From: a virus
Direction: 5' to 3' (one strand)
Length of the DNA: 64,000 bases
IMG/VR virus record: IMGVR_UViG_3300043449_002675
Location: 27,969-91,968 of that record
The position numbers were made by a program, and so were the translations under genes. Each line of letters starts with the position of its first letter. Positions within the stretch are counted from its first letter, which is position 1. Shown one piece after another: positions 4,739 through 63,571 of this stretch. The notes under the pieces were generated by a model. It was not told where the DNA came from and ran no database searches. It saw nothing but the letters and a program-made list of their open reading frames with translations.

Positions 4739-6979
4739 ATGGCCGGAAATCCTTTTATGCCCCGTCAAGGTTATGCTATTGCAGATCAAGGCGATGATGA
4801 TAGATTATTGAAACTTGAAGAGAAAATGTTTCGAGTCGAGGAATTCATAAATCTGGCAGAACAAACAAAAGATACACAAACTGATATTAATCAAGGCTCA
4901 TATGGTGTGTTTCTTGGCTACTGTGTAGACACACTCGATATTTACAAACAAAATAGAATACGATTCTTTTGCCCTTTGTTTCATCGTCCTGACACACCTA
5001 TAGGCAGCTTGCCATTTGCGCTGCCAATTACCAATTTTGGCGGCATTGATGATTGTGGTGGCAACTGGGTGCCTCCAGCAGGCTCTACTGTAGCTTTGGT
5101 TTTTGAAGGCGGAGACAGATTGAGCCCGTTTTATCTAGGCACAACTTGGACAAGACTTAATGGAGGGTTGTTTCAAGGCGAATATTACAATATTCCCATG
5201 ACAGAATATGATTTGTTGTACAAGGGGCAGAGAGGAGGCTATTTGTGTGGTCCTAATAATGGAACGCAAGTTCTGCCACCTTGGAATACTGAGAGCTATA
5301 ACGGCTTTGACATCACCTCTGTATCTGATATAAACAATGCTCCCAATTTATTGCAGAAAATGACGTTCCCTAACATTTATGGATTCAAAACACCTCAAAA
5401 ACACATGTTTAAGATGGTGGATGGAGATGCCAAGTGTAATCAAAAGTGGAAAAGAATAGAAATATTATCCGGATGTGGAAACTGGATGATCATGAAAGAT
5501 GATCACTTACACTATTGTGGACAGTGGGCACATCCAGTATGCGGTGCCGTTCCGGGAGATACTAGTTGTCAGGTTGGTATAGTAAATCCCCCTCCACAAA
5601 CAGCCATAGATGCTAATGGCGTACTGGTTCCAGCCGAACCTGCCGGCGGATCAAATGTTTTTAGTTCGGAAGTTAGCGAAATAGAAGATGCATATGCGAC
5701 TATAAATTTCTTCGGGGAAAAGAAAGAAAACCCGTCCGGATCTTCATTATGTGGCGGTAGAACGATTGGCGGGAATCCAGACTATCCGGGCAAAAATACA
5801 CAGAGAGGTGCAAATCCTTTTTTCAAACAACAAAGTGAGTGCCGCCCATATCGTGGACCGCAAACACCACAAAATAACAAATGTGACTTACCACAGTCTG
5901 GCATTCAGTTATTAAGCATCTCTGGTCACACCTTTGTTATGGATGATTCTGTCGAAGCTCCTCAAGGTGGCATGGAGTGGCAAAGAAGTACGCAGCCTTT
6001 TGATTTCGGTTGCACAAACAAATATCTTGGAAGAACCTATTGGAAAAGCAGCACGGGACATCAAATAGTTTTAGATGACAGCGAATTAATGGGTTCTGCC
6101 AAAGAAACAAGAAGTATTAACAACGGCATTCAGTTGCTCACAGCTTTAGGAAATCAAATTTATCTTTCCGATTCATCTGCCGGCCCTACATGTCCAAGTT
6201 TGGCAACTGAGCAGCAGGGTATAAGCGTAAGAAGCACCAGCGGTCATAGATTGATCATGAGTGACAACAATAATGATCGCCAAATCCCTTGCAGGAAAGG
6301 ATATGGCTATCCAAATCCGCAGAATAATGCCAAAAATGCTTACATCGAAATGCGTAGCGGTTATGGGCTAGCTTTGGAGATGTTCGATGGAGCAAGTCAA
6401 AAAGAGGCTAGTGACGATACTTACATGCGATTGCTGGCACCACAAACTGGCAATGATAGAGGTCCTCATTTTCTTCAATTCCAAGAAAGAAAGAGTCAAA
6501 ATGGCTATGTTCTTTTGAGGGCAGGAGGAGATTATAGGTTAGAAACCTTTGGCGGCGTGTCTGAAATTATCGGATTCAGCGACAGTCAAAATAGTGTTGG
6601 TAACAGAGTTACACAGATCAAAAACAACAGTTTTGAACTGGTAAATCAGACTCGCTATCAAAAAAATGCATTAAATCTAAACATAAGTGATACTAAATCT
6701 TTAATTTTGGCTGGAAAAGACTACGATCAAAAGCCTTCTAAAGAACAATTACAAGCTGAAGAGGATGCCAGAGCAGCCGGTTTGCCCGTTCCGCCAAGGG
6801 AAAAAGTCCCGAATGTATGCCCAGTTGTGGTTTTTGACGGTGCGAGAGGCTTATTGGTATGCAGCGATAGGGTTTTTGCTAGTGCGAGCCCTAATGCACC
6901 GCCTGCAAGCATATTCAATTTAACACCTTTGACGCCTTATAAGAATATTGATGAGTTCAAAAAAGCTCTTAAGTCATAA
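4739..6979 (+). CDS. 5: Baseplate spike/hub protein, gp5-like with OB fold
   Basis: A 746-residue protein. Residues 55-140 look like the gp5/VgrG-type OB fold: G-V-F-L-G-Y-C-V-D, an I-R-F-F-C-P strand, then W-V-P-P-A-G-S-T-V-A-L-V-F-E-G-G-D and P-F-Y-L-G-T-T-W. Later segments repeat a G-H-x-x-x-x-D-D/S-D/N pattern (around residues 398, 440, 470 and 503), suggesting a repetitive beta spike. I see no T4-type lysozyme domain, so it is probably a spike without the tail lysozyme. The C-terminal 70 residues are Pro/Ala-rich. Its position next to gp25- and gp6-like genes fits the central hub. Confidence 0.7.
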   Translation: MAGNPFMPRQGYAIADQGDDDRLLKLEEKMFRVEEFINLAEQTKDTQTDINQGSYGVFLGYCVDTLDIYKQNRIRFFCPLFHRPDTPIGSLPFALPITNFGGIDDCGGNWVPPAGSTVALVFEGGDRLSPFYLGTTWTRLNGGLFQGEYYNIPMTEYDLLYKGQRGGYLCGPNNGTQVLPPWNTESYNGFDITSVSDINNAPNLLQKMTFPNIYGFKTPQKHMFKMVDGDAKCNQKWKRIEILSGCGNWMIMKDDHLHYCGQWAHPVCGAVPGDTSCQVGIVNPPPQTAIDANGVLVPAEPAGGSNVFSSEVSEIEDAYATINFFGEKKENPSGSSLCGGRTIGGNPDYPGKNTQRGANPFFKQQSECRPYRGPQTPQNNKCDLPQSGIQLLSISGHTFVMDDSVEAPQGGMEWQRSTQPFDFGCTNKYLGRTYWKSSTGHQIVLDDSELMGSAKETRSINNGIQLLTALGNQIYLSDSSAGPTCPSLATEQQGISVRSTSGHRLIMSDNNNDRQIPCRKGYGYPNPQNNAKNAYIEMRSGYGLALEMFDGASQKEASDDTYMRLLAPQTGNDRGPHFLQFQERKSQNGYVLLRAGGDYRLETFGGVSEIIGFSDSQNSVGNRVTQIKNNSFELVNQTRYQKNALNLNISDTKSLILAGKDYDQKPSKEQLQAEEDARAAGLPVPPREKVPNVCPVVVFDGARGLLVCSDRVFASASPNAPPASIFNLTPLTPYKNIDEFKKALKS

Positions 6980-6994
6980 TGTTTCTGTGTAGAC

Positions 6995-7002
6995 TATATA
7001 AT
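6995..7002 (+). promoter_or_regulatory. TATATAAT box (candidate promoter)
   Basis: TATATAAT lies in the 73-base gap between the gp5-like and gp25-like genes, 50 bases before the ATG at 7053. It belongs to the TATATAA series described at 2753. Confidence 0.3.
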
Positions 7003-7052
7003 TTATTAGTTGAAAAAACTATTAATAATATGTAGATTTCGCATGGAGAATC

Positions 7053-38551: not shown

Positions 38552-40339
38552 ATGAGCAGTGTTTGGAAAAAAAAGTATAAATCTTTGAAAGCTTATTATA
38601 AAGCTGAATATGATCAAGATTTCTATTACTTCGACAAAATGCAGCTGGAGATTGATCCAGATGAAACTGTCGATGAAGTTAGTTTGTACGATACTTACCA
38701 ACAGGCAGAAGAAATAGAAAAATGTGTTCAAAGTTTTCCCTATTTTTGTCACAAATATGTAAAGATTCTGCACCCAACTAAAGGTTTGATACCTTTTGTT
38801 ATGTATAAATATCAAGCCAGAAGTATAGAATTCTATCAAAAACATAGGTTTAATATTATTAGCAAGTTCCGACAGGGTGGTTTGACAACAGTTACTTTGC
38901 TTTATGGTTTATGGAAATGCATGTTTGAGCTTGACCAGCAGATAATGGCATTAAGCAAAACAGATAGAGAAGCCGTAGGCATCGGCATGATGGTGGATAG
39001 AGCTGTTGAACATATGCCTACTTGGATGAAACCAAAAAAAGATGGCAAATGGAATGATCACTTAAAACAATTCCCAGATACAGGTGGAGCATTACAGTTT
39101 TTCTCTCCTGAAGCTGCCCGTGGTAAATCAGTTACCTTCCTAATAATAGACGAAGCGGCGTTCATTCCAGATATGGAAAATCACTGGAAAGCTATGTGGC
39201 CGGTGTTGTCAACTGGTGGAAGTTGTGTGCTTGTTTCAACAGTAAATGGACTTGGTAACTGGTACGAAGAGACATACACAAACGCCAAAGACGGCAAAAA
39301 CATGTTCCATGTAATCGACTTGGATTACTGGGAACATCCTGATTATTCTCCAAAAAATAATCCCAACTGGGAAAAGGAACAAAGAAGCCAGCTTGGGGAA
39401 AAAGGCTTCCTACAGGAAGTTTTGCGTAGTTTCTTGGGGTCTGGCGACACCTACATACCAGCAGACAAAATTACCGCCATAGAACAACAAATAAGAAACA
39501 AATATCCTACAAAAAGACTTTTCCCACATTTTTGTAACAAAGATAATCCAGAAGAAAATGATTCAGAGTTCGAAAAAGGTTCTTTGTGGATTTGGCAAGA
39601 ACCAAAAGATGGTGCCGATTACATTCTTGGTGTAGACTGCGCTGAAGGTATCGGATCACATGGCGATAATTCCTGCATACAAGTTATAAATTCAAATACT
39701 TTAGAACAAGTCGGTGAATTTTACAGCAATAGCATTCAACCACATGATTTTTCCCACATAGTGCATGAATTGGCTACAGCCTACAACTCAGCCATGGTAA
39801 TTGTAGAAGATATGTCAAGTGGCGGCATAGTTTTGGATATGTTGTTTAGAGAATTATCTTACGAAAATTTATTTTATCCCCCAAAATTTACCAAAAATGT
39901 AAAGCCCGGCATAAAGATGTCTGTAAATACTAGACCTATAGTATTGCAAGGTTTTCAAAGCAGAATATTAAACGGAGCCTTGATTGTTAACAGCCGTAGA
40001 TTGATAAATGAAATGAAAACATTTGAGTACAATAGTGGTACTAAAAAAGCCGAGGCTGCCAAGGGCAAACATGATGATGCCATAATTGCCATGGCCTTGG
40101 CTCTGTATGCCAGAGATCAAAGTATAAGAGATATTCCCTTGGGAATGACTGCGGGAGAATCACAAACTAAGACGCAAGCAAACGTGGCAGATATTCGTGC
40201 CGAATTAAGGAAAGGACTTAGGGAATCTATAATTGAAAAAGTCTTGAAAAAAGAAAAAACGGTCGAAGACTTGGAAAACGAAAACTTGTTGAAAATGTAC
40301 AGAAAACAAAATGCACTTTTAAAGGACTTTGGTTGGTAA
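38552..40339 (+). CDS. 17: Terminase large subunit (gp17-like)
   Basis: A 595-residue packaging motor. The ATPase half has the Walker A-like loop near residue 105 (S-K-F-R-Q-G-G-L-T-T) and Walker B near 198 (F-L-I-I-D-E-A-A-F), then a coupling motif V-S-T-V-N-G. The nuclease half has G-V-D-C-A-E-G near 362, V-E-D-M near 418 and K-H-D-D-A near 506, the acidic residues of the RNase H-like headful nuclease. Length matches T4 gp17 (610). No Shine-Dalgarno site precedes the ATG. No small terminase is visible nearby. Confidence 0.95.
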   Translation: MSSVWKKKYKSLKAYYKAEYDQDFYYFDKMQLEIDPDETVDEVSLYDTYQQAEEIEKCVQSFPYFCHKYVKILHPTKGLIPFVMYKYQARSIEFYQKHRFNIISKFRQGGLTTVTLLYGLWKCMFELDQQIMALSKTDREAVGIGMMVDRAVEHMPTWMKPKKDGKWNDHLKQFPDTGGALQFFSPEAARGKSVTFLIIDEAAFIPDMENHWKAMWPVLSTGGSCVLVSTVNGLGNWYEETYTNAKDGKNMFHVIDLDYWEHPDYSPKNNPNWEKEQRSQLGEKGFLQEVLRSFLGSGDTYIPADKITAIEQQIRNKYPTKRLFPHFCNKDNPEENDSEFEKGSLWIWQEPKDGADYILGVDCAEGIGSHGDNSCIQVINSNTLEQVGEFYSNSIQPHDFSHIVHELATAYNSAMVIVEDMSSGGIVLDMLFRELSYENLFYPPKFTKNVKPGIKMSVNTRPIVLQGFQSRILNGALIVNSRRLINEMKTFEYNSGTKKAEAAKGKHDDAIIAMALALYARDQSIRDIPLGMTAGESQTKTQANVADIRAELRKGLRESIIEKVLKKEKTVEDLENENLLKMYRKQNALLKDFGW

Positions 40340-42009: not shown

Positions 42010-44556
42010 ATGGCAACGCCGATTTGGGCAGACTTTTTTAAAACATGGGATTTTGCATTCGCAAGGGATCCTGTTTCAAGGTCTATTGACCCGAAAGACC
42101 TTGTTGGCGCAGGTATTGGACAGCCAGATGCGATTCCAACATTAAATCCAGACGGAAGCTTTTGGAGCAATTCTGACTCTAGGCTAATTAGATTACGTGA
42201 AACTAATGATTTTATCGATCTTTCAACAGTTTCAAATAGACAAAGCAGATACAAGGAATATGAAAGACTAAGAACAATACCGGAAATTGAGTGTGCCCTA
42301 AATGTTTTTTCAGATGAAGCATGCTTGTCTGGAAAAACTCCTGTAGCAACACCATTTGGTTTTATTCCTATTGAAAAGCTTGCTACAACACATAAAAGCG
42401 ATAAATTTTTAGTATATTGCTACGACTTCACTAAAAAAGATTACGCTCTGGGCTGGGCTCATAGTCCTAGAAAAACCAAAACAGCCGAAACCGTTAATGT
42501 AGTTTTAGATAACGGCAAAGATTTGCAATGCACCCCAGATCATAGAATTTTGATGAGAGATGGCACTTGGAAATATGCCGGTGACTTGAAGGAAGGCGAT
42601 TTATTAATGCCTTTTTACAGGAACCCAGTAAATCAATTTGCAAACAATTTGCCTAGTAAACAATATCCAAGAATATTTACTTTTACCCATGGATGGATAC
42701 ATGAGAGACACTTTGTCGATAGTTGGAGAACTGGTAAAGTTGACAAAAAAATGGAGAGAATTGCTCTCTACGGAAGATTACTTGCACAAGATCTAAATAT
42801 GAATCAAATCGCACAACAAGCGGATTGCGATTGGAAAACTGTGAAAAACAGATTGCGTTCTGAGGGCCACACAGTAGATGAACTTAGATGGCTGGCAAGG
42901 CACAAAGATCACAGGAGAGTATTGGGTGTTTTTAAAGGCGAAGTTCAAGATGTTTATGACTTAACAGTTGAAGAGCACCATAATTTCGCAACAGATTCAA
43001 CAATAGTTCATAATTGCCAGAAAGACAGCGATGGGAATGTTGTACAGGTGCATTGTGCGGATGAAGATGTGAAAATGGAGATAGAATTCCTGTTTTTGCA
43101 CAGGAATATGATCAATCTAAACAGAAGAATTTGGTCTGATTTCAAGAGCATGTTGCTGTATGGGGATTTGTTTTATGAGTTAGTAATAAACTTGGATGAT
43201 CCCAAAGAAGGTGTCATGAAGATCACTCGCCTTCCTCCTGAATCCATGTACAGAATTGAAACAACAAAGGGAAGAGTCGTTGAATTTCAACAATCTAAAG
43301 AAGGCCCTGATTATCAGTCATTGACTAAAGCTCCAGTTGTACATGCCACAGATCAAGAAATCGCTATGGCTACAGCCATACGATTCAGTCCTGAACAAGT
43401 GGTACACGCCCGCTTGGGTGATGACAGGAGAACATTCTACCCTTATGGTGTGAGCATAGTAGAGCCAGCCAGAGGGCCTGCCAATCAATTAAGACTCATG
43501 GAAGACTCAATGTTGGTTTATAGACTTGCAAGAAGTCCGGAAAGAAGAGTGTTTTATATTGATGTTGGTCAGTTGCCTCCTTTTAAAGCAGAGGCTTTCG
43601 TAGAAAGATTGAAAGATCAATTCCGCAAAAAGAAAGTAAGTCATCACCAAGGGCAAGCCGGCGGTTATAACCCTAATGCAGTTGATGAAAAGTACCACGC
43701 CCCCGCTGTAGATGAAGATTTCTGGCTGCCTATCAGACCAAATTCCAATACTAAAATTGAAACTTTGCCCGGTGCCCAAAACTTGGGAGAAATTGACGAT
43801 GCAATCTATTTCAGAAATAGGTTATTCACAGCACTACAGTTCCCAAAAAATTACATGAATACAGAAGACCCTCAGCAAACTAAGGTTACTTTAAGTAGCC
43901 AAGATGTTAGAGTGGCAAGGCTTATTGAAAGATTCCAAGCTCCTTACGAAGACATTTTGTGGGAAATAGCTGATAGACATTTGAAACTGAGAGGTTTTCC
44001 AACTGAAACCTATGAAGATTTAAAAATCAAAATGACACAGCCTTCTGAGTGGCGTGAATTAAGCCGTGCAGAGGTTGTTAATGCCAGAATACAAAATGCA
44101 ACTTCTCTTAAGGGCTCTGCTATTTTATCAGATTATGATATATTGACTGGCTGGATGAAATATAGTGAAGAACAAGCCAAAGTATTGACAGCACGTATGA
44201 AAATGCAGAAAATTGAAGATGCCAAATTGCAAGTTCTATCACAAAATCCTGCGCTTCTTGGTGTTGGCATTCCTAGTGACCAAGAAAATCAAGAAAACAA
44301 AATTGGCGCTACGCCCGAAGGCCCGAACAATGAACTTACGCCTGAAGGCTTGCCTAGCACTCCAGAACAACCTGCTGGTGGTGAATTGGGTGGTGAGCAA
44401 CCTCCAGAAAATGCCAAATCAGAACCCTCTGCTGGCTCTCAAAGCACAACAACGCTTCAACAGCCCACTGAAGAGGATTTGGTCAAGTATGATATTGAAA
44501 TACAGAATTACGCCAGCGAAGAAGACATGGAACCGCCGGATTACAGCGAATATTAA
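42010..44556 (+). CDS. 20: Portal protein (gp20-like) interrupted by an intein
   Basis: An 848-residue precursor. Exteins 1-104 and 336-848 together (617 residues) resemble T4-type portals: Y-E-R-L-R-T-I-P-E-I-E-C-A-L-N, then C-Q-K-D-S-D-G-N-V-V, I-W-S-D-F-K-S-M-L-L-Y-G-D-L-F-Y-E-L, and N-Y-M-N-T-E-D-P. The portal forms the dodecameric DNA gate at the head vertex and nucleates assembly. The C-terminus is disordered and Pro/Glu-rich. Splicing is needed for function. AGAGG lies upstream of the start. Gene order terminase-portal-protease-scaffold-capsid matches T4. Confidence 0.92.
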   Translation: MATPIWADFFKTWDFAFARDPVSRSIDPKDLVGAGIGQPDAIPTLNPDGSFWSNSDSRLIRLRETNDFIDLSTVSNRQSRYKEYERLRTIPEIECALNVFSDEACLSGKTPVATPFGFIPIEKLATTHKSDKFLVYCYDFTKKDYALGWAHSPRKTKTAETVNVVLDNGKDLQCTPDHRILMRDGTWKYAGDLKEGDLLMPFYRNPVNQFANNLPSKQYPRIFTFTHGWIHERHFVDSWRTGKVDKKMERIALYGRLLAQDLNMNQIAQQADCDWKTVKNRLRSEGHTVDELRWLARHKDHRRVLGVFKGEVQDVYDLTVEEHHNFATDSTIVHNCQKDSDGNVVQVHCADEDVKMEIEFLFLHRNMINLNRRIWSDFKSMLLYGDLFYELVINLDDPKEGVMKITRLPPESMYRIETTKGRVVEFQQSKEGPDYQSLTKAPVVHATDQEIAMATAIRFSPEQVVHARLGDDRRTFYPYGVSIVEPARGPANQLRLMEDSMLVYRLARSPERRVFYIDVGQLPPFKAEAFVERLKDQFRKKKVSHHQGQAGGYNPNAVDEKYHAPAVDEDFWLPIRPNSNTKIETLPGAQNLGEIDDAIYFRNRLFTALQFPKNYMNTEDPQQTKVTLSSQDVRVARLIERFQAPYEDILWEIADRHLKLRGFPTETYEDLKIKMTQPSEWRELSRAEVVNARIQNATSLKGSAILSDYDILTGWMKYSEEQAKVLTARMKMQKIEDAKLQVLSQNPALLGVGIPSDQENQENKIGATPEGPNNELTPEGLPSTPEQPAGGELGGEQPPENAKSEPSAGSQSTTTLQQPTEEDLVKYDIEIQNYASEEDMEPPDYSEY
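42322..43014 (+). other. Mini-intein in the portal gene
   Basis: Residues 105-335 of the portal precursor (231 residues). It starts with C-L-S-G-K-T-P-V (block A), has T175-P-D-H178 (block B), and ends F-A-T-D-S-T-I-V-H-N before Cys336 (blocks F and G). The LAGLIDADG endonuclease is missing. In its place is a short insert with a helix-turn-helix-like stretch (M-N-Q-I-A-Q-Q-A-D-C-D-W-K-T-V-K-N). Splicing residues C1, T/H, H-N and +1 Cys are all intact, so it should still splice. Confidence 0.9.
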
Positions 44557-58215: not shown

Positions 58216-58614
58216 ATGTTGACATTTCACGAATGGTTAAATGAAGCAGCTGGCATTGCTACAAGCAAAAAGCAATTCAAGCAGGGTGACGAACCCAGTT
58301 TTGCTGGTGCTGGCAGCGATTTAGGTGAAATTAAGCACGGACACAAAAAGAAAAAGAAACATGAAGCAGCCGGTATTGCAACAAGTAAAAAGCAATTCAA
58401 GCAGGGCGACGAACCCAGTTTCGCTGGCGCTGGTAGTGATTTAGGTGAAATTAAGCGTGGTAACAAAAAAAAGCAGAAAGATGAGGCTGCTGGTATTGCC
58501 ACAAGTTGCTCACAGTTTAAACAGGGTGACCAACCTAACTTCGCTGGCTCAGGGAGCAATATGGGATGCAAAGCAGAAAGAAAAAAGTCTGGCAAGAAAA
58601 CAAAAATGGACTAA
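58216..58614 (+). CDS. Three-repeat basic protein with capsid-targeting-like start
   Basis: A 132-residue protein. M-L-T-F-H-E-W-L-N-E then A matches, position by position, the pattern I recall for the T4 internal-protein capsid-targeting peptide (M-K-T-Y-Q-E-F-I-A-E/A), including an L-x-E prohead-protease site. Then come two near-identical 40-residue units and a diverged third, each with A-A-G-I-A-T-S, Q-F-K-Q-G-D, F-A-G and a Lys run. The basic runs fit packaging with DNA. AAGGGG precedes the ATG. Confidence 0.55.
   Translation: MLTFHEWLNEAAGIATSKKQFKQGDEPSFAGAGSDLGEIKHGHKKKKKHEAAGIATSKKQFKQGDEPSFAGAGSDLGEIKRGNKKKQKDEAAGIATSCSQFKQGDQPNFAGSGSNMGCKAERKKSGKKTKMD
58243..58611 (+). repeat. Three tandem 120-base coding repeats
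   Basis: Unit 1 at 58243-58362, unit 2 at 58363-58482 and a diverged unit 3 at 58483-58611. Units 1 and 2 differ by silent changes and a few residues, so the duplication is old enough to have diverged at synonymous sites but is kept at protein level. Confidence 0.85.
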
Positions 58615-59066: not shown

Positions 59067-59503
59067 GAAAGAAGCGCAGCAAAATGCAATTTAAGTACGT
59101 GCAGCTCGCCATCTAAAGAACTATGTCCTGAATTCAGTAAATTTAACTGTAAGTAATTGTTTGTTTTTTTGTTTCTTAACACACCATCTATGCAAATCAT
59201 ATTTTTTCTAGCATTACACATATTTGTCTTTATTGTCTCGAAAAGATGGTAATTCGAGGAGTTTGCCTTGAGTTTTAGCGAGACACATCCGCCTTCAATG
59301 CTGTATACATTTTTGAATCCTTTTGCTTTATAGTAACTGTTATAGTTGTATATAGCATCTTTTTTGTACATAGAAACTTCGGCGCTGTCAATGTCGAAGC
59401 CGAAAATAAATAGGTTTCTATGCCAAAATTCCATTCTTTTATGAGGAAGATCACGATAAATATTATTGGGTTCATCATATACATTAAAAACGGTTGGTTT
59501 CAT
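59063..59503 (-). CDS. Hypothetical protein
   Basis: A 146-residue protein from the ATG at 59503, with GAGG ahead; the longer upstream reading has no site. Mixed strands and helices, with a G-G-C-V-S-L-K-L and a D-G-E-L-H-V-L-K-L-H-F strand at the end. No family recognised. It is divergent from the peptidase gene at 59524, their ribosome sites back to back. Confidence 0.45.
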   Translation of the reverse strand: MKPTVFNVYDEPNNIYRDLPHKRMEFWHRNLFIFGFDIDSAEVSMYKKDAIYNYNSYYKAKGFKNVYSIEGGCVSLKLKANSSNYHLFETIKTNMCNARKNMICIDGVLRNKKTNNYLQLNLLNSGHSSLDGELHVLKLHFAALLS

Positions 59504-59523
59504 ATTCAAACCTCGGGGGCACG

Positions 59524-60090
59524 GTGAAGAAAATTTATCGCAAACGTATAAAAAACGAATCGATAAAAATAAACTTACCAGAAGTGCAACAAAAAACACA
59601 TTTTAGCTGTGCAGCAGCGGTGGTGCATAGTATTTGCAGCTATTGGGGTCTGCAATTACCGAGTCACTATGATTATTTTCCGCATTTGGAAACAGATGAG
59701 TCATACGGAACTTTGCCTCAAAAAATTGCAAAATATTTTAAGTCCACAGGACTGACAGCATCTATCCAGTATAATATGACAATCAAAAATCTTTGTCAAG
59801 AAATAAATCAAGGAAGACCAGTTATTTTAGCTTTACAAGCTTGGGGGAATCCCAAGCATTATGCACGAACTGGTAGTGGTCATTATGTTGTTGCCATAGG
59901 TTTTGATGAAAAAAATATTTATTTTGAGGACCCATGGTTAAATTGCTCAAGAGGTTTTATTCCTAAAAGCGAATTACTTAAACGCTGGCATGATATGGAT
60001 TACATGGGAGTGACACATAATCGCATGGGCATAATTGTATCACACAAGAAAAAGCCAACATATCCATTTACTGCCAAAAAGATTAACTAA
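59524..60090 (+). CDS. Papain-like cysteine peptidase (C39-like)
   Basis: The GTG at 59524, after GGGGG, is chosen over an upstream TTG. The 188-residue protein has C29 in T-H-F-S-C-A-A-A-V-V-H, H120 in S-G-H-Y-V-V-A-I-G-F and D136 in F-E-D-P-W, the Cys-His-Asp triad and order of C39-type peptidases, which cut after double glycine. There is no transporter or substrate next to it. No signal peptide, so probably cytoplasmic or packaged. Confidence 0.7.
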   Translation: MKKIYRKRIKNESIKINLPEVQQKTHFSCAAAVVHSICSYWGLQLPSHYDYFPHLETDESYGTLPQKIAKYFKSTGLTASIQYNMTIKNLCQEINQGRPVILALQAWGNPKHYARTGSGHYVVAIGFDEKNIYFEDPWLNCSRGFIPKSELLKRWHDMDYMGVTHNRMGIIVSHKKKPTYPFTAKKIN

Positions 60091-60682
60091 ATTCAATTCT
60101 TTTATAAACAGGCAATTTTTGCCCAATCAAATGCATAAATCTAATTTTGTTTTGATCTTTAAAAGAAATTATTTTGCTTCCGCCAAAGTTTTTTATTTCT
60201 CCAGCAATTCCAATTATTTTAAAGTAATCGTGAATATTATTAACTGAATTTTCGTCTAATCTGCTTATTCTCAAAGACACGTTATTTTTTGTAACATTAC
60301 CTTTGTCCATAAACCAGCAGGCCAAGCCAAAGTCTTGCAACATATCTAGCCATTCCATGCTTATGTGTTTTTTGTTTTTCTTGTAACAAAGATCATAAAA
60401 CTCATTCCAGCATGGGCAGCTAATGCTGTTCCACCTGAAACTGTCTTTATCAGCAACAAAAGATTTAGATCTAGAAAAGCGTTGCAATTCATATGCTTTG
60501 CATCGAATCCATGTGCCGCCTTTGGAAATACTTTCACGCATTTGAAAATGCGGGTTCTTACTTTTTTTTGGGTTTATTATGCTTGAATTTCCTAACAAAG
60601 TCCCAAGTATCAATTGTTTTTCTCTGTTTGTAAATATTAGCTTTCTTAGGCCATCTCCATCATTTTGCCATTGATCCATCAT
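60083..60682 (-). CDS. LAGLIDADG-type endonuclease, probably inactive
   Basis: A 199-residue protein; GAGGT ahead of the ATG at 60682 sets the start. Two dodecapeptide motifs are present, L-I-L-G-T-L-L-G-N-S and L-A-C-W-F-M-D-K-G. In active LAGLIDADG_2 enzymes the eighth position of each is Asp; here it is Asn and Lys, so both catalytic acids look lost. It lies next to the intein-bearing peptidase gene and overlaps the C39-like gene by eight bases. Confidence 0.7.
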   Translation of the reverse strand: MMDQWQNDGDGLRKLIFTNREKQLILGTLLGNSSIINPKKSKNPHFQMRESISKGGTWIRCKAYELQRFSRSKSFVADKDSFRWNSISCPCWNEFYDLCYKKNKKHISMEWLDMLQDFGLACWFMDKGNVTKNNVSLRISRLDENSVNNIHDYFKIIGIAGEIKNFGGSKIISFKDQNKIRFMHLIGQKLPVYKRIEFS

Positions 60683-60706
60683 TTTATACCTCATATAAAA
60701 AATATA

Positions 60707-60807: not shown

Positions 60808-62871
60808 TTAAATTTTCCAGCGTAATTTTCTTAGCGGAAATCCTTGAACTGCGCTGTAGCAGAATGAGTCATCTTGTTTGAGCATTTTGTCAATAACAGA
60901 CCAGTGTGCATAGAATCCGGCAGGACTTGGCTCTCCCGGTCCTATATTAGAAGTTCCCATATATGTGCCCCAAGAATTTAAAATAAATCCATGTTCTTCG
61001 CCATCTATAGTAGCGTAGCCAATTATGGCCATTTGATGCGCCCAAGATCCTGATGGCTTGCATACACCTTTTGAATTTCTTGATGTTGTAAAACCTTGGT
61101 TGCTAGCAACAGAAATGCCATAGCCTTGTACAAGAGATTTTTTTGCACTTTTCCAATCTGAAATTTGTGTAGTATATTTTACAGGGTGTTCTTTAACTAG
61201 TGGTTCCAAGTCATTTGGAACACCAGAAGCTCCCCATTGTCGGCATAATGATTCGGAGTATTTTTCAAGGTTATATTTTCCGTTTAAGAATGTGCCTCTG
61301 TTGATTATGCCATATTTTCTCACGAAATCTGCACCCCAAGCGCCTATACTTCCGTCTCCTCTACCTAGTCTTCCATTTCCTATTTCGACTCTGCTTCCTC
61401 CATAAACAATTTCTTGGACTAGTGGTTTAAATTCTTCTGCATCTCCTTGGGCTATTTCTGCGCACATCGTATATTCAATAGCGGAACAGCAGCCAAAAGC
61501 TACGCAGTTGTGTACGCCTATTCCTTCAACCACATAGCTATTATCACCCTCTACTTCAAAATTAAACACTTCTCCAGTGTATTTTGTTTCTCCAAGGTAT
61601 GTAATTTTGCGCCATTGTCTATTCTCATCTTGTTGTGGCTTGTTTAATCCGCCACCAGTAGAAATGATTAGATCATATCTTCTGCGTCTTGATTTTACGC
61701 CATGACTAACTTTCGGATCGCTTTTTCTTATAACTGGCGATAGACCAAGTTTATTTGTGATGTCGAACATATTGAGAGCTAGTTCGTGGGATACAGTAAC
61801 GCCTTGAATGCATTTCTTGGCAGAACTAACATGCCCATCACCGTCCATCCAGCCTCTAAATGTTTCTTTGAGAAACTTTAAAGGTCCGCATAAAAGATCT
61901 TTATGGATGGCTTTATTTCCGCTGCCATTGCCGCATAATTTTTCAAATAAATTGCTCCACTCTCTGCCGTGCAAAATAACTTTGCAGGTATTTTTTTCCG
62001 GTATTTCCCTTATTCTGGCAGAGGCATTCAATTGATTTTTGAGAATATCGACAACATCTTTTGCAAGGGTGTCTTTTTCATCAATATTGAATGTCCAGCA
62101 AACTTTGTTTTTGTCTGTATTTCCCTCAGCAAGGAAAAGTCCTATAAGTCTGCCGAAATCTTCTGTTAATTCTATTTCTTCTGGCATAGGAGATATTTGT
62201 ATTACTGATTTTTTCCTGCCCATGACACTTCCAGAAACACGGCAAATTTCTTTTCTTGTAATTTTTACATTCCAAGATGCATAATCTTGTGTTTTTATGG
62301 AAGTTTTGTTTTCTGGAATATACTTAGGACAGGAGACATAATCTCCTATTTTCAGCTCATCCATTCTTACATACCCTCTTTGTGTAAGAATTGGGTGTTC
62401 TGCGGTTGCTTGCAACCCATAATGCCCGTGGCATTTGAAAGATAACAAAGATTTGTTTTCTTCCCTTAGGAAACAAGTTGTTACCTTTCCAATATTTCCT
62501 TCGGCAGTAAGAACTTTATCCCTCAGCTTGATATCTTCTATATTTTTGTAAGAACCGTCTGCCATTCTTATTTTAGTACCTGCTGGGAAACAACTGCCCA
62601 CTTGTCCCTGATTTCTTGGAGGCAAATTGTCTCCAGTAACCATTTTTGCGAAGTCCCATAGATAGCAATGATCGGGCAGTTCATCATCCGCATATCCAGC
62701 TGCTGGTGTATCGCTAAAGTTTTTAATATCAAATGTAGCTAGCGTTTCTTGTACAGCTATAGGGTCATCAACCCAGCCGAAAGCAACGTCATTAGGAACA
62801 TATGTAATAGAATGGTCAAATCCTTCACTGGAAAGCAAGTCCATGTATGTTTGATATGCTGGATTATCCAT
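60808..62871 (-). CDS. Papain-family (C1A) cysteine peptidase with intein
   Basis: A 687-residue precursor; AGGGGG sets the start. Exteins 1-93 and 456-687 form a C1A peptidase of 325 residues: N-Q-G-Q-V-G-S then Cys456 (nucleophile, in C-V-A-F-G), H612 in S-W-A-H-Q-M and N632 in L-N-S-W-G. The pro-region is short and no signal peptide is seen. The intein is placed between G-S and the catalytic Cys, so activity needs splicing. It overlaps the upstream secreted-protein gene by eight bases. Role (virion or host protein cleavage) unknown. Confidence 0.85.
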   Translation of the reverse strand: MDNPAYQTYMDLLSSEGFDHSITYVPNDVAFGWVDDPIAVQETLATFDIKNFSDTPAAGYADDELPDHCYLWDFAKMVTGDNLPPRNQGQVGSCFPAGTKIRMADGSYKNIEDIKLRDKVLTAEGNIGKVTTCFLREENKSLLSFKCHGHYGLQATAEHPILTQRGYVRMDELKIGDYVSCPKYIPENKTSIKTQDYASWNVKITRKEICRVSGSVMGRKKSVIQISPMPEEIELTEDFGRLIGLFLAEGNTDKNKVCWTFNIDEKDTLAKDVVDILKNQLNASARIREIPEKNTCKVILHGREWSNLFEKLCGNGSGNKAIHKDLLCGPLKFLKETFRGWMDGDGHVSSAKKCIQGVTVSHELALNMFDITNKLGLSPVIRKSDPKVSHGVKSRRRRYDLIISTGGGLNKPQQDENRQWRKITYLGETKYTGEVFNFEVEGDNSYVVEGIGVHNCVAFGCCSAIEYTMCAEIAQGDAEEFKPLVQEIVYGGSRVEIGNGRLGRGDGSIGAWGADFVRKYGIINRGTFLNGKYNLEKYSESLCRQWGASGVPNDLEPLVKEHPVKYTTQISDWKSAKKSLVQGYGISVASNQGFTTSRNSKGVCKPSGSWAHQMAIIGYATIDGEEHGFILNSWGTYMGTSNIGPGEPSPAGFYAHWSVIDKMLKQDDSFCYSAVQGFPLRKLRWKI
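61507..62592 (-). other. Full-length LAGLIDADG intein in the peptidase gene
   Basis: Residues 94-455 of the precursor (362). Block A C-F-P-A-G-T-K-I, block B T156-A-E-H159, dodecapeptides R-L-I-G-L-F-L-A-E-G (241-250) and F-R-G-W-M-D-G-D-G (339-347), and ending G-I-G-V-H-N455 before Cys456. Splicing residues are intact and the endonuclease acids (E249, D345) are in place, so it is probably active and mobile. Confidence 0.92.
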
Positions 62872-63571
62872 TAAGTCCCCCTAGAATTTTCGCAACTCTG
62901 TTGAATTGTTCTTTGCATTTTTTTCTTAAATTATCATCTAAAACTGCATTAGGATCTGTGCCTAATACCTTGTCTAATTCGTTTGCAAGCACCTCTCTAA
63001 TTGGTTCAATTTTGCCTGCTTTTAGGTTTTGATAAGAAATAGATCGTATGGTTGAATAAAGTTGTCCAAGATTTTTGTATTTGGGATTATCAACTTCAAC
63101 TAGTGCCAACTGATATACTTGCGCCAGCTGTTTTATCGAATTTTCCTTATCGGACTCTTGCAGACCTCCGTAAATACCAGCAACATTATCTCTTAGTTCA
63201 TCTGGTTTGCTTGGATCGGGAGGTGTAGGAGGTGTTGGGGGCGTAGGCGGAGGGTTGGGGTTATCGCCAACAACGACCGTGGTAAATGCGGGATCGGTTG
63301 GAACATTATTTATGCTGGTGTATGCAAGAAGTCTGTAGGAGCCGTTTTTTGTAGCTACGACAACAGTAGTTTTTTTGTCGGCTAGTAAATTGGCGGGAAA
63401 TACGTTCAATCCGGGATCAAGAGCCACGAATTTTACGACTTCTCCCTTGGTTTGTGCGGTAATTGGCACAAAAGCTCCAACTTGTGCTTTTATTTGATCT
63501 GGAAGTAAAATTTCTGGTCCGACGCCTACCTGAGAAAATGCCAAAAGCGCAGCTATAATTAATGAATTCAT
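62864..63571 (-). CDS. Secreted Pro-rich protein, planctomycete type
   Basis: A 235-residue protein with GGAGA ahead. It begins with a short signal-like peptide (M-N-S-L-I-I-A-A-L-L-A-F-S). A small beta domain follows with G-E-V-V-K-F-V-A-L-D-P-G-L-N-V-F-P, then a T-P-P-T-P-P linker at about 107-120 and a helical C-terminus of about 110 residues. The beta-plus-Pro layout, especially L-N-V-F-P, is one I associate with planctomycete genomes. It overlaps the peptidase gene downstream, so it may deliver or anchor that activity. Confidence 0.55.
   Translation of the reverse strand: MNSLIIAALLAFSQVGVGPEILLPDQIKAQVGAFVPITAQTKGEVVKFVALDPGLNVFPANLLADKKTTVVVATKNGSYRLLAYTSINNVPTDPAFTTVVVGDNPNPPPTPPTPPTPPDPSKPDELRDNVAGIYGGLQESDKENSIKQLAQVYQLALVEVDNPKYKNLGQLYSTIRSISYQNLKAGKIEPIREVLANELDKVLGTDPNAVLDDNLRKKCKEQFNRVAKILGGLNG

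What the first reader, a model, noticed from the sequence alone, without database searches (positions are those of the whole stretch)
60808..62871. Intein exactly in front of a peptidase's catalytic cysteine
Seen: the extein reads N-Q-G-Q-V-G-S, then the intein (362 residues), then C-V-A-F-G; Cys456 is both the +1 splicing nucleophile and the papain active-site Cys. Known: inteins prefer conserved active sites. Inference: protease activity is switched on only by splicing, so protein splicing could time or localise a cytotoxic activity.
Basis: partly seen in the sequence, partly recalled or inferred. Interest (0 to 1): 0.75.

Follow-up and report, generated by a model that had tools for sequence, protein, structure and literature searches.

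The report
Intein at phage protease's catalytic cysteine
A self-splicing, mobile protein insert (an intein) sits exactly in front of the catalytic cysteine of a phage papain-like protease, and its closest relatives sit at the same spot in about ten other, very different phage proteases, so splicing should be needed to make the enzyme, though nothing shows that it acts as a timed switch.

Summary
The ORF at 60808-62871 (-) is a papain-family (C1) peptidase split by a 362-residue LAGLIDADG intein. Its first residue is Cys94, it ends His-Asn, and the +1 residue, Cys456, is the papain nucleophile. The empty site proves the boundaries: 66 related phage contigs and 45 copies in Gemmataceae genomes carry the same peptidase uninterrupted, with Gln, Cys, His and Asn conserved. 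An AlphaFold model of an intein-free homologue is a papain fold with that Cys at the start of the central helix.

New here: the window intein's nearest relatives in 2.9 million viral contigs (38-44% identical) lie at the same position in other phage papain-like peptidases whose exteins barely align. About 11 contigs have it; six of these inteins form a 100/99-supported clade.

Best explanation: a class-1 mobile intein in an undeletable codon, whose precursor is very probably inactive until it splices. The "timed or localised cytotoxic switch" is not supported: no other member of the window peptidase's own family was seen with the intein (one close relative is cut off at the junction), both endonuclease motifs are intact, and conditional splicing was not tested. 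The peptidase is more likely a lysis-type enzyme than a toxin (modest evidence).

The parts
60808..62871 (-). Precursor ORF, 687 aa: papain-family (C1) peptidase interrupted by an intein
   Evidence: unbroken frame
62593..62871 (-). N-extein, residues 1-93, ending RNQGQVGS
   Evidence: abuts the C-extein directly in intein-free homologues
62608..62610 (-). Codon of Gln88, papain oxyanion-hole Gln (-6 from the catalytic Cys)
   Evidence: motif conserved in homologues
61507..62592 (-). Intein, 362 aa: Hint splicing domain with LAGLIDADG endonuclease domain; Cys1 ... His361-Asn362
   Evidence: empty sites; Foldseek to TliVMA intein and PI-SceI
62395..62406 (-). Intein block B Thr-Ala-Glu-His (TxxH)
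   Evidence: Thr63 and His66 invariant in relatives
62122..62148 (-). LAGLIDADG motif 1 (LIGLFLAEG), acidic residue present
   Evidence: Pfam LAGLIDADG_3
61834..61860 (-). LAGLIDADG motif 2 (FRGWMDGDG), acidic residue present
61507..61512 (-). Intein C-terminal His-Asn (block G)
   Evidence: NCBIfam intein_Cterm
61504..61506 (-). Codon of Cys456: splicing +1 nucleophile and papain catalytic Cys
   Evidence: model of homologue L003 has this Cys (Cys71) at the first residue of helix 71-89
60808..61506 (-). C-extein, residues 456-687, with the stop codon
61036..61038 (-). Codon of catalytic His (C-extein residue 157, WAHQM)
   Evidence: conserved in the complete homologues
60976..60978 (-). Codon of catalytic Asn (C-extein residue 177, NSWGT)
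   Evidence: conserved in the complete homologues
62864..63571 (-). Conserved partner gene: signal-peptide-like start, Ig-like part, Pro-rich linker, helical end; its stop overlaps the peptidase start
   Evidence: homologue beside the peptidase in 125 of 135 fetched loci, counted with some duplicate contigs
60083..60694 (-). Free-standing LAGLIDADG_2 homing endonuclease just downstream; possibly unrelated to the intein
   Evidence: Pfam E 2.6e-23; also present in the L002 contig

Best explanation
This is a mobile class-1 intein with a LAGLIDADG homing endonuclease, inserted in the catalytic-cysteine codon of a phage papain-family peptidase. Likely mechanism: (1) the endonuclease cuts intein-free alleles at the DNA encoding (N/D)QGxxGS^C, and repair copies the intein in; (2) the gene is translated as a 687-residue precursor in which the intein separates oxyanion Gln88 from catalytic Cys456, so no papain active site exists; (3) Cys94 makes a thioester, Cys456 takes over the N-extein, Asn455 cyclises, and the flanks join as ...NQGQVGS-CVAFG..., restoring the enzyme. 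Using the catalytic Cys as +1 residue gives the intein a guaranteed nucleophile and makes imprecise deletion destroy the enzyme. The insert is best read as a persistent parasite rather than a regulator. The peptidase itself is most likely a late, wall- or envelope-directed lysis-type enzyme. Shown here: anatomy, empty sites, conserved catalytic residues, predicted fold of the intein-free enzyme, recurrence of related inteins at this site. Inferred: homing, splicing activity, inactive precursor, role of the peptidase.
For: Splice-block and domain matches. Exact empty sites in the family. Papain fold and catalytic residues of an intein-free homologue: pLDDT 92.5, Foldseek to cathepsins and xylellain at E about 1e-11. 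Strong purifying selection on the C-extein against its closest relative, dN 0.035 at dS about 1.2, so the enzyme is kept functional. Both LAGLIDADG motifs intact. Sporadic distribution: one carrier seen among over 110 family members. Related inteins at the same position in divergent phage C1 peptidases: inteins 38-44% identical over full length while C-exteins match only in short, weak stretches; clade support 100/99. Literature: phage inteins sit next to conserved motifs and splicing makes the active site (PMC5050341; PMC7765530). Lysis-type role: small membrane protein beside the peptidase in 96 of 135 loci; a homologous C1 domain fused to PG_binding_1 and a glycoside-hydrolase-like domain in Alicyclobacillus phage MMB025 'endolysin'.
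Against: No splicing, cutting or protease assay exists. The intein model is only medium confidence (pLDDT 61.7, shallow alignment). The window peptidase only just reaches Pfam's C1 cut-off. The L002 contig, the nearest relative, ends 12 bases past the junction, so whether it carries the intein is unknown. The lysis role rests on neighbourhood, with weak PHROG hits only.
Confidence: 0.88

Rival explanations
1. Regulatory switch: splicing is conditional (redox, metal, temperature, infection stage) and releases the peptidase at a set time, for example lysis. The intein has been kept because it delays activity.
For: Active-site position makes activity depend on splicing; a catalytic Cys as +1 is redox-sensitive; lysis-type neighbourhood; the same site is used in about 11 phage peptidases; conditional splicing is documented for other inteins, e.g. 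mycobacterial DnaB (papers listed).
Against: No other member of the window's family was seen with it. Intact endonuclease motifs and recurrence at the same codon fit selfish homing. C5-methyltransferase relatives use the same +1 arrangement, so the arrangement alone says nothing about a protease switch.
Confidence: 0.07
2. Splicing-dependent protection: the insert keeps a protease silent inside the producing cell so that the phage avoids damage before assembly (a zymogen role, without environmental control).
For: Precursor should be inactive by structure; papain-like enzymes usually need a pro-form (general knowledge).
Against: Intein-free relatives persist without it; class-1 inteins often splice quickly, giving little delay (e.g. 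phage terminase inteins, PMC5050341).
Confidence: 0.04
3. Decaying insert: the intein no longer splices, or only cleaves, and the peptidase is being lost.
For: Block F has Asn where Asp is commonest.
Against: All key residues (C1, TxxH, HN, C+1) are present; Asn at that block-F place is also seen in relatives; the C-extein is under strong purifying selection.
Confidence: 0.03

Closest known systems
Inteins in phage DNA C5-cytosine methyltransferases (e.g. Lactobacillus phage Nyseid; loci L053-L055)
   Same: Class-1 intein with LAGLIDADG domain placed immediately before the catalytic Cys, which becomes the +1 residue
   Different: Host enzyme is a methyltransferase; inteins only about 28% identical and outside the papain-site clade
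Phage terminase and other active-site inteins (mycobacteriophages, PMC5050341)
   Same: Mobile inteins next to invariant motifs; splicing needed to form the active site
   Different: ATPases and nucleases, insertion near P-loop or metal motifs rather than at a protease nucleophile
Inteins in proteases: chloroplast ClpP (Wang and Liu 1997, cited in PMC5784728) and Lon protease (in the abbreviation list of PMC5784728)
   Same: Intein interrupts a protease
   Different: Not papain-family; position relative to their nucleophiles not tested here
TliVMA and yeast VMA (PI-SceI) inteins
   Same: Hint plus LAGLIDADG architecture; best structural matches
   Different: Host is the V-ATPase catalytic subunit; sequence identity about 15%
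Papain / cathepsin / xylellain peptidases (C1)
   Same: Fold and catalytic Gln-Cys-His-Asn
   Different: Phage/Planctomycetes subfamily, about 15-20% identical to solved ones; no PHROG family

Membership tests
Class 1 intein | Nucleophile at intein residue 1 (block A), TxxH in block B, C-terminal His-Asn, Cys/Ser/Thr at +1 | tested here: met
   C1, TAEH, HN, C+1
Class 1 intein | In-frame insert absent from homologous alleles, with exact flanks | tested here: met
Class 1 intein | Self-splicing to ligated exteins | not testable with these tools
   needs expression
LAGLIDADG homing endonuclease intein | Two LAGLIDADG motifs with acidic residues | tested here: met
   LIGLFLAEG and FRGWMDGDG
LAGLIDADG homing endonuclease intein | Cuts the empty allele | not testable with these tools
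   needs a cleavage assay
Papain family (C1) peptidase | Gln-Cys-His-Asn active site in order | tested here: met
Papain family (C1) peptidase | Papain fold | tested here: met
   predicted for intein-free homologue L003, pLDDT 92.5, Foldseek prob 1.00
Papain family (C1) peptidase | Pfam Peptidase_C1 at gathering score | tested here: met
   window 20.7 bits at cut-off 20.7; homologues L016 36.6 and L003 29.3
Papain family (C1) peptidase | Protease activity | not testable with these tools
   none
Phage lysin (considered for the peptidase) | Recognisable wall-binding domain or match to a known lysin family | tested here: not met
   no PHROG match; no binding domain in the window protein; only a distant relative, MMB025, has one
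Phage lysin (considered for the peptidase) | Lies in a holin/spanin cassette | tested here: inconclusive
   small membrane or coiled-coil genes adjacent in many relatives, weak matches; not clearly present in the window
Conditional (regulatory) intein | Splicing depends on a signal | not testable with these tools
   none

The most novel reading that the evidence does not exclude
A lineage of inteins has specialised on the active site of phage papain-family lysis enzymes, and splicing of the catalytic cysteine acts as a natural, possibly redox-gated timer of lysis.
Probability: 0.06. Interest if true: 0.85.

Novelty: new member of a known kind. Interest (0 to 1): 0.5.

Why it matters
It adds a new host enzyme family and, as far as the searches here reach, an unreported recurrent insertion site for inteins: the catalytic Cys of phage C1 peptidases. 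One Cys serves in splicing trans-esterification and ligation and then in proteolysis. Because related inteins occur in very divergent peptidases that share little more than the active-site motif, the set is a good system for asking how far a homing endonuclease can follow a protein motif, and for testing directly whether active-site inteins ever act as switches.

Tried and rejected
Intein as regulator conserved in the family: rejected, no intein in the other members whose junction could be read. Co-conversion tract around the insertion (L002 vs window): synonymous sites near saturation everywhere, no usable signal. Named phages for the peptidase: no match; for the intein: only C5-methyltransferases, ribonucleotide reductase, thymidylate synthase and others at 22-28%. 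N-extein as query: nothing. MAFFT alignment A3 of precursor plus homologues misplaced the N-extein motif and was discarded. Intein profile in 392 Planctomycetota genomes: only distant hits. A single-TM holin-like gene in the window genome itself: only a weak hit to a coiled-coil ORF. Papers on papain-like or endolysin inteins: none found in the held library; subscription literature was not searched. Planctomycete host: suggested only by the peptidase family; the terminase is closest to the uncultured 595-kb phage LR756511, so the host is left open.

Full report
WHAT IS THERE. The ORF at 60808-62871 on the minus strand encodes 687 residues. Residues 94-455 are an intein: Pfam Intein_splicing (2e-9), LAGLIDADG_3 (1.5e-8) and Hom_end_hint beginning at residue 94; NCBIfam intein_Nterm from 94 and intein_Cterm ending at the +1 residue 456. 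It has Cys1, block-B TAEH, two LAGLIDADG motifs with acidic residues, and a C-terminal His-Asn. AlphaFold gives a medium-confidence model (pLDDT 61.7) whose best PDB matches are the TliVMA intein (E 1.5e-15) and PI-SceI.

THE EMPTY SITE. The C-extein found 50 related viral contigs and a profile search 67, of which 17 are new. Wherever the junction could be read, N-extein residue 93 is joined directly to C-extein residue 1. Seven bacterial contigs were found, six labelled Limnoglobus, Gemmataceae or Planctomycetia and one binned as Bacteroidales, whose genome the tool nevertheless grouped in the same family as Limnoglobus. Of 95 genomes of that family 34 carry the peptidase in 45 copies, whose matches leave no room for an intein. 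Together 66 viral contigs and 45 genomic copies lack the intein; only the window was seen with it. The nearest relative, L002 (94% identical C-extein), cannot be scored because its contig ends 12 bases after the junction; an assembly fork between filled and empty alleles would do this, but it is only suggestive.

THE CATALYTIC CYSTEINE. The homologues keep the papain pattern Gln (-6), Cys (+1), His and Asn. The model of the intein-free homologue L003 (pLDDT 92.5) has the Cys as first residue of the central helix and matches procathepsins, papain and xylellain (E about 1e-11, probability 1.00). Between L002 and the window the C-extein has dN 0.035 at dS about 1.2, which means the spliced product matters to the phage.

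RECURRENCE, the main new result. A degenerate DNA scan for QGxxG[S/T]C followed by an intein start and then an intein profile found more papain-like peptidases split at the same place: L189, the same contig as L178 (DQGQLGS^C); L204 = L175 (DQGQQGS^C); L190 (NQGTTPM^C); L193 (NDQRNTNS^C); L194 (ENQNGSSS^C); L188 (DQGQTSS^C); L230 (a mini-intein, LDQDGRGA^C); and L192 = L176 (NQGNEGS^C) and L174 (NQGSHGS^C), whose contigs end inside the intein. L187 (QKIGS^C) is probable: its Gln is at -5 and Pfam does not reach Peptidase_C1; L188 and L204 are also assigned by motif only. Pfam Peptidase_C1 is reached by the window, L189, L190, L193, L194 and L230. Window intein against L187, L188, L189, L190: 38-44% identity over full length, E 1e-77 or better; the C-exteins give only short or weak matches, best E 2e-4 among all pairs with the window. 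In a 46-row tree the window, L187, L188, L189, L190 and L192 form a 100/99 clade, nine papain-site inteins fall in an 11-row set (95/88), and the label needs 3 changes against 8.4 in shuffles, with 0 of 500 as low. Sampling favours relatives of the seeds, and several long branches are unsure; L193, L194 and L204 are placed less firmly. The simplest reading is one intein lineage moving horizontally between divergent C1 peptidases through the shared active-site codons. Window and L187 share GGCAGT^TGCGTA around the insertion point although the proteins hardly align, a hint of a DNA recognition core.

HOW IT PROBABLY WORKS. Homing (inferred) puts the intein into the most constrained codon; class-1 splicing (inferred from the residues) joins the halves and restores the enzyme. 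A precursor with Gln88 and Cys456 on either side of a 40-kDa insert should be inactive; that is an inference from the fold. Nothing tested here shows that splicing is delayed or conditional. Active-site insertion is a general habit of phage inteins (PMC5050341; PMC7765530), and other inteins found here use a catalytic Cys as +1: DNA C5-methyltransferases and a ribonucleotide reductase in LR756511; which Cys is catalytic in those enzymes is general knowledge, not tested here.

WHAT THE PEPTIDASE MAY DO. A partner gene with a signal-peptide-like start lies beside the peptidase in 125 of 135 fetched loci and a short membrane/coiled-coil protein in 96 (some contigs counted twice). Small membrane genes also lie near the intein-bearing L187, L188, L190 and L194, with weak PHROG hits to Rz-like spanins for two. 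A homologue of the L189 C-extein is the C1 domain of an Alicyclobacillus phage MMB025 protein annotated endolysin, which also has PG_binding_1 and a glycoside-hydrolase-like domain. I therefore favour a late, lysis-type enzyme (about 0.5) over a toxin; the window protein has no wall-binding domain and no lysin family match, so this is not a membership claim.

VERDICT. Observation confirmed; interpretation partly supported. An ordinary kind of element (class-1 mobile intein) in an unusual and, in the sources searched, unreported host site that recurs across phages.

Noticed in passing
42322-43014 (+), inside the portal gene 42010-44556: A second intein, 231 aa, in the portal protein (FSDEA^CLSG...VHN^CQKD); present at the same site in the L002 contig, 75% identical.
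   Followed up: partly
60083-60694 (-): Free-standing LAGLIDADG_2 homing endonuclease directly downstream of the intein-bearing gene; also in the L002 contig (70% identical) but not seen beside the peptidase in the L003 locus.
   Followed up: partly
59494-60090 (+): A second cysteine peptidase gene, C39-like (Pfam 3e-15), with a PHROG match to an endolysin (1.8e-7), two genes from the C1 peptidase.
   Followed up: no
58216-58614 (+): ORF made of three near-identical repeats (EAAGIATSKKQFKQGDEPSFAGAGSDLGEIK).
   Followed up: no
L015 (and L113, same contig): The partner gene and the peptidase are fused in one frame, apparently by loss of the junction; supports a functional pair, or is an assembly join.
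   Followed up: no
L002 start; L174; L176/L192; L191: Contigs that end at the intein junction (L002) or inside an intein (others), as expected if filled and empty alleles coexist in the samples.
   Followed up: partly
L191, residues 118-134 of ORF 5602-7029: A related intein (35%) in another protein at MGNDVHGDCT^C, which resembles a different cysteine-peptidase motif; contig ends in the intein.
   Followed up: no
38552-40339 (+): Terminase large subunit is closest (48.6%) to the uncultured 595-kb phage LR756511, so the 92-kb record may be a fragment of a very large phage.
   Followed up: partly
G080 (4 copies), G066 (4 copies): Some Gemmataceae genomes carry several copies of the intein-free peptidase, so the family is also cellular or in prophages.
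   Followed up: no
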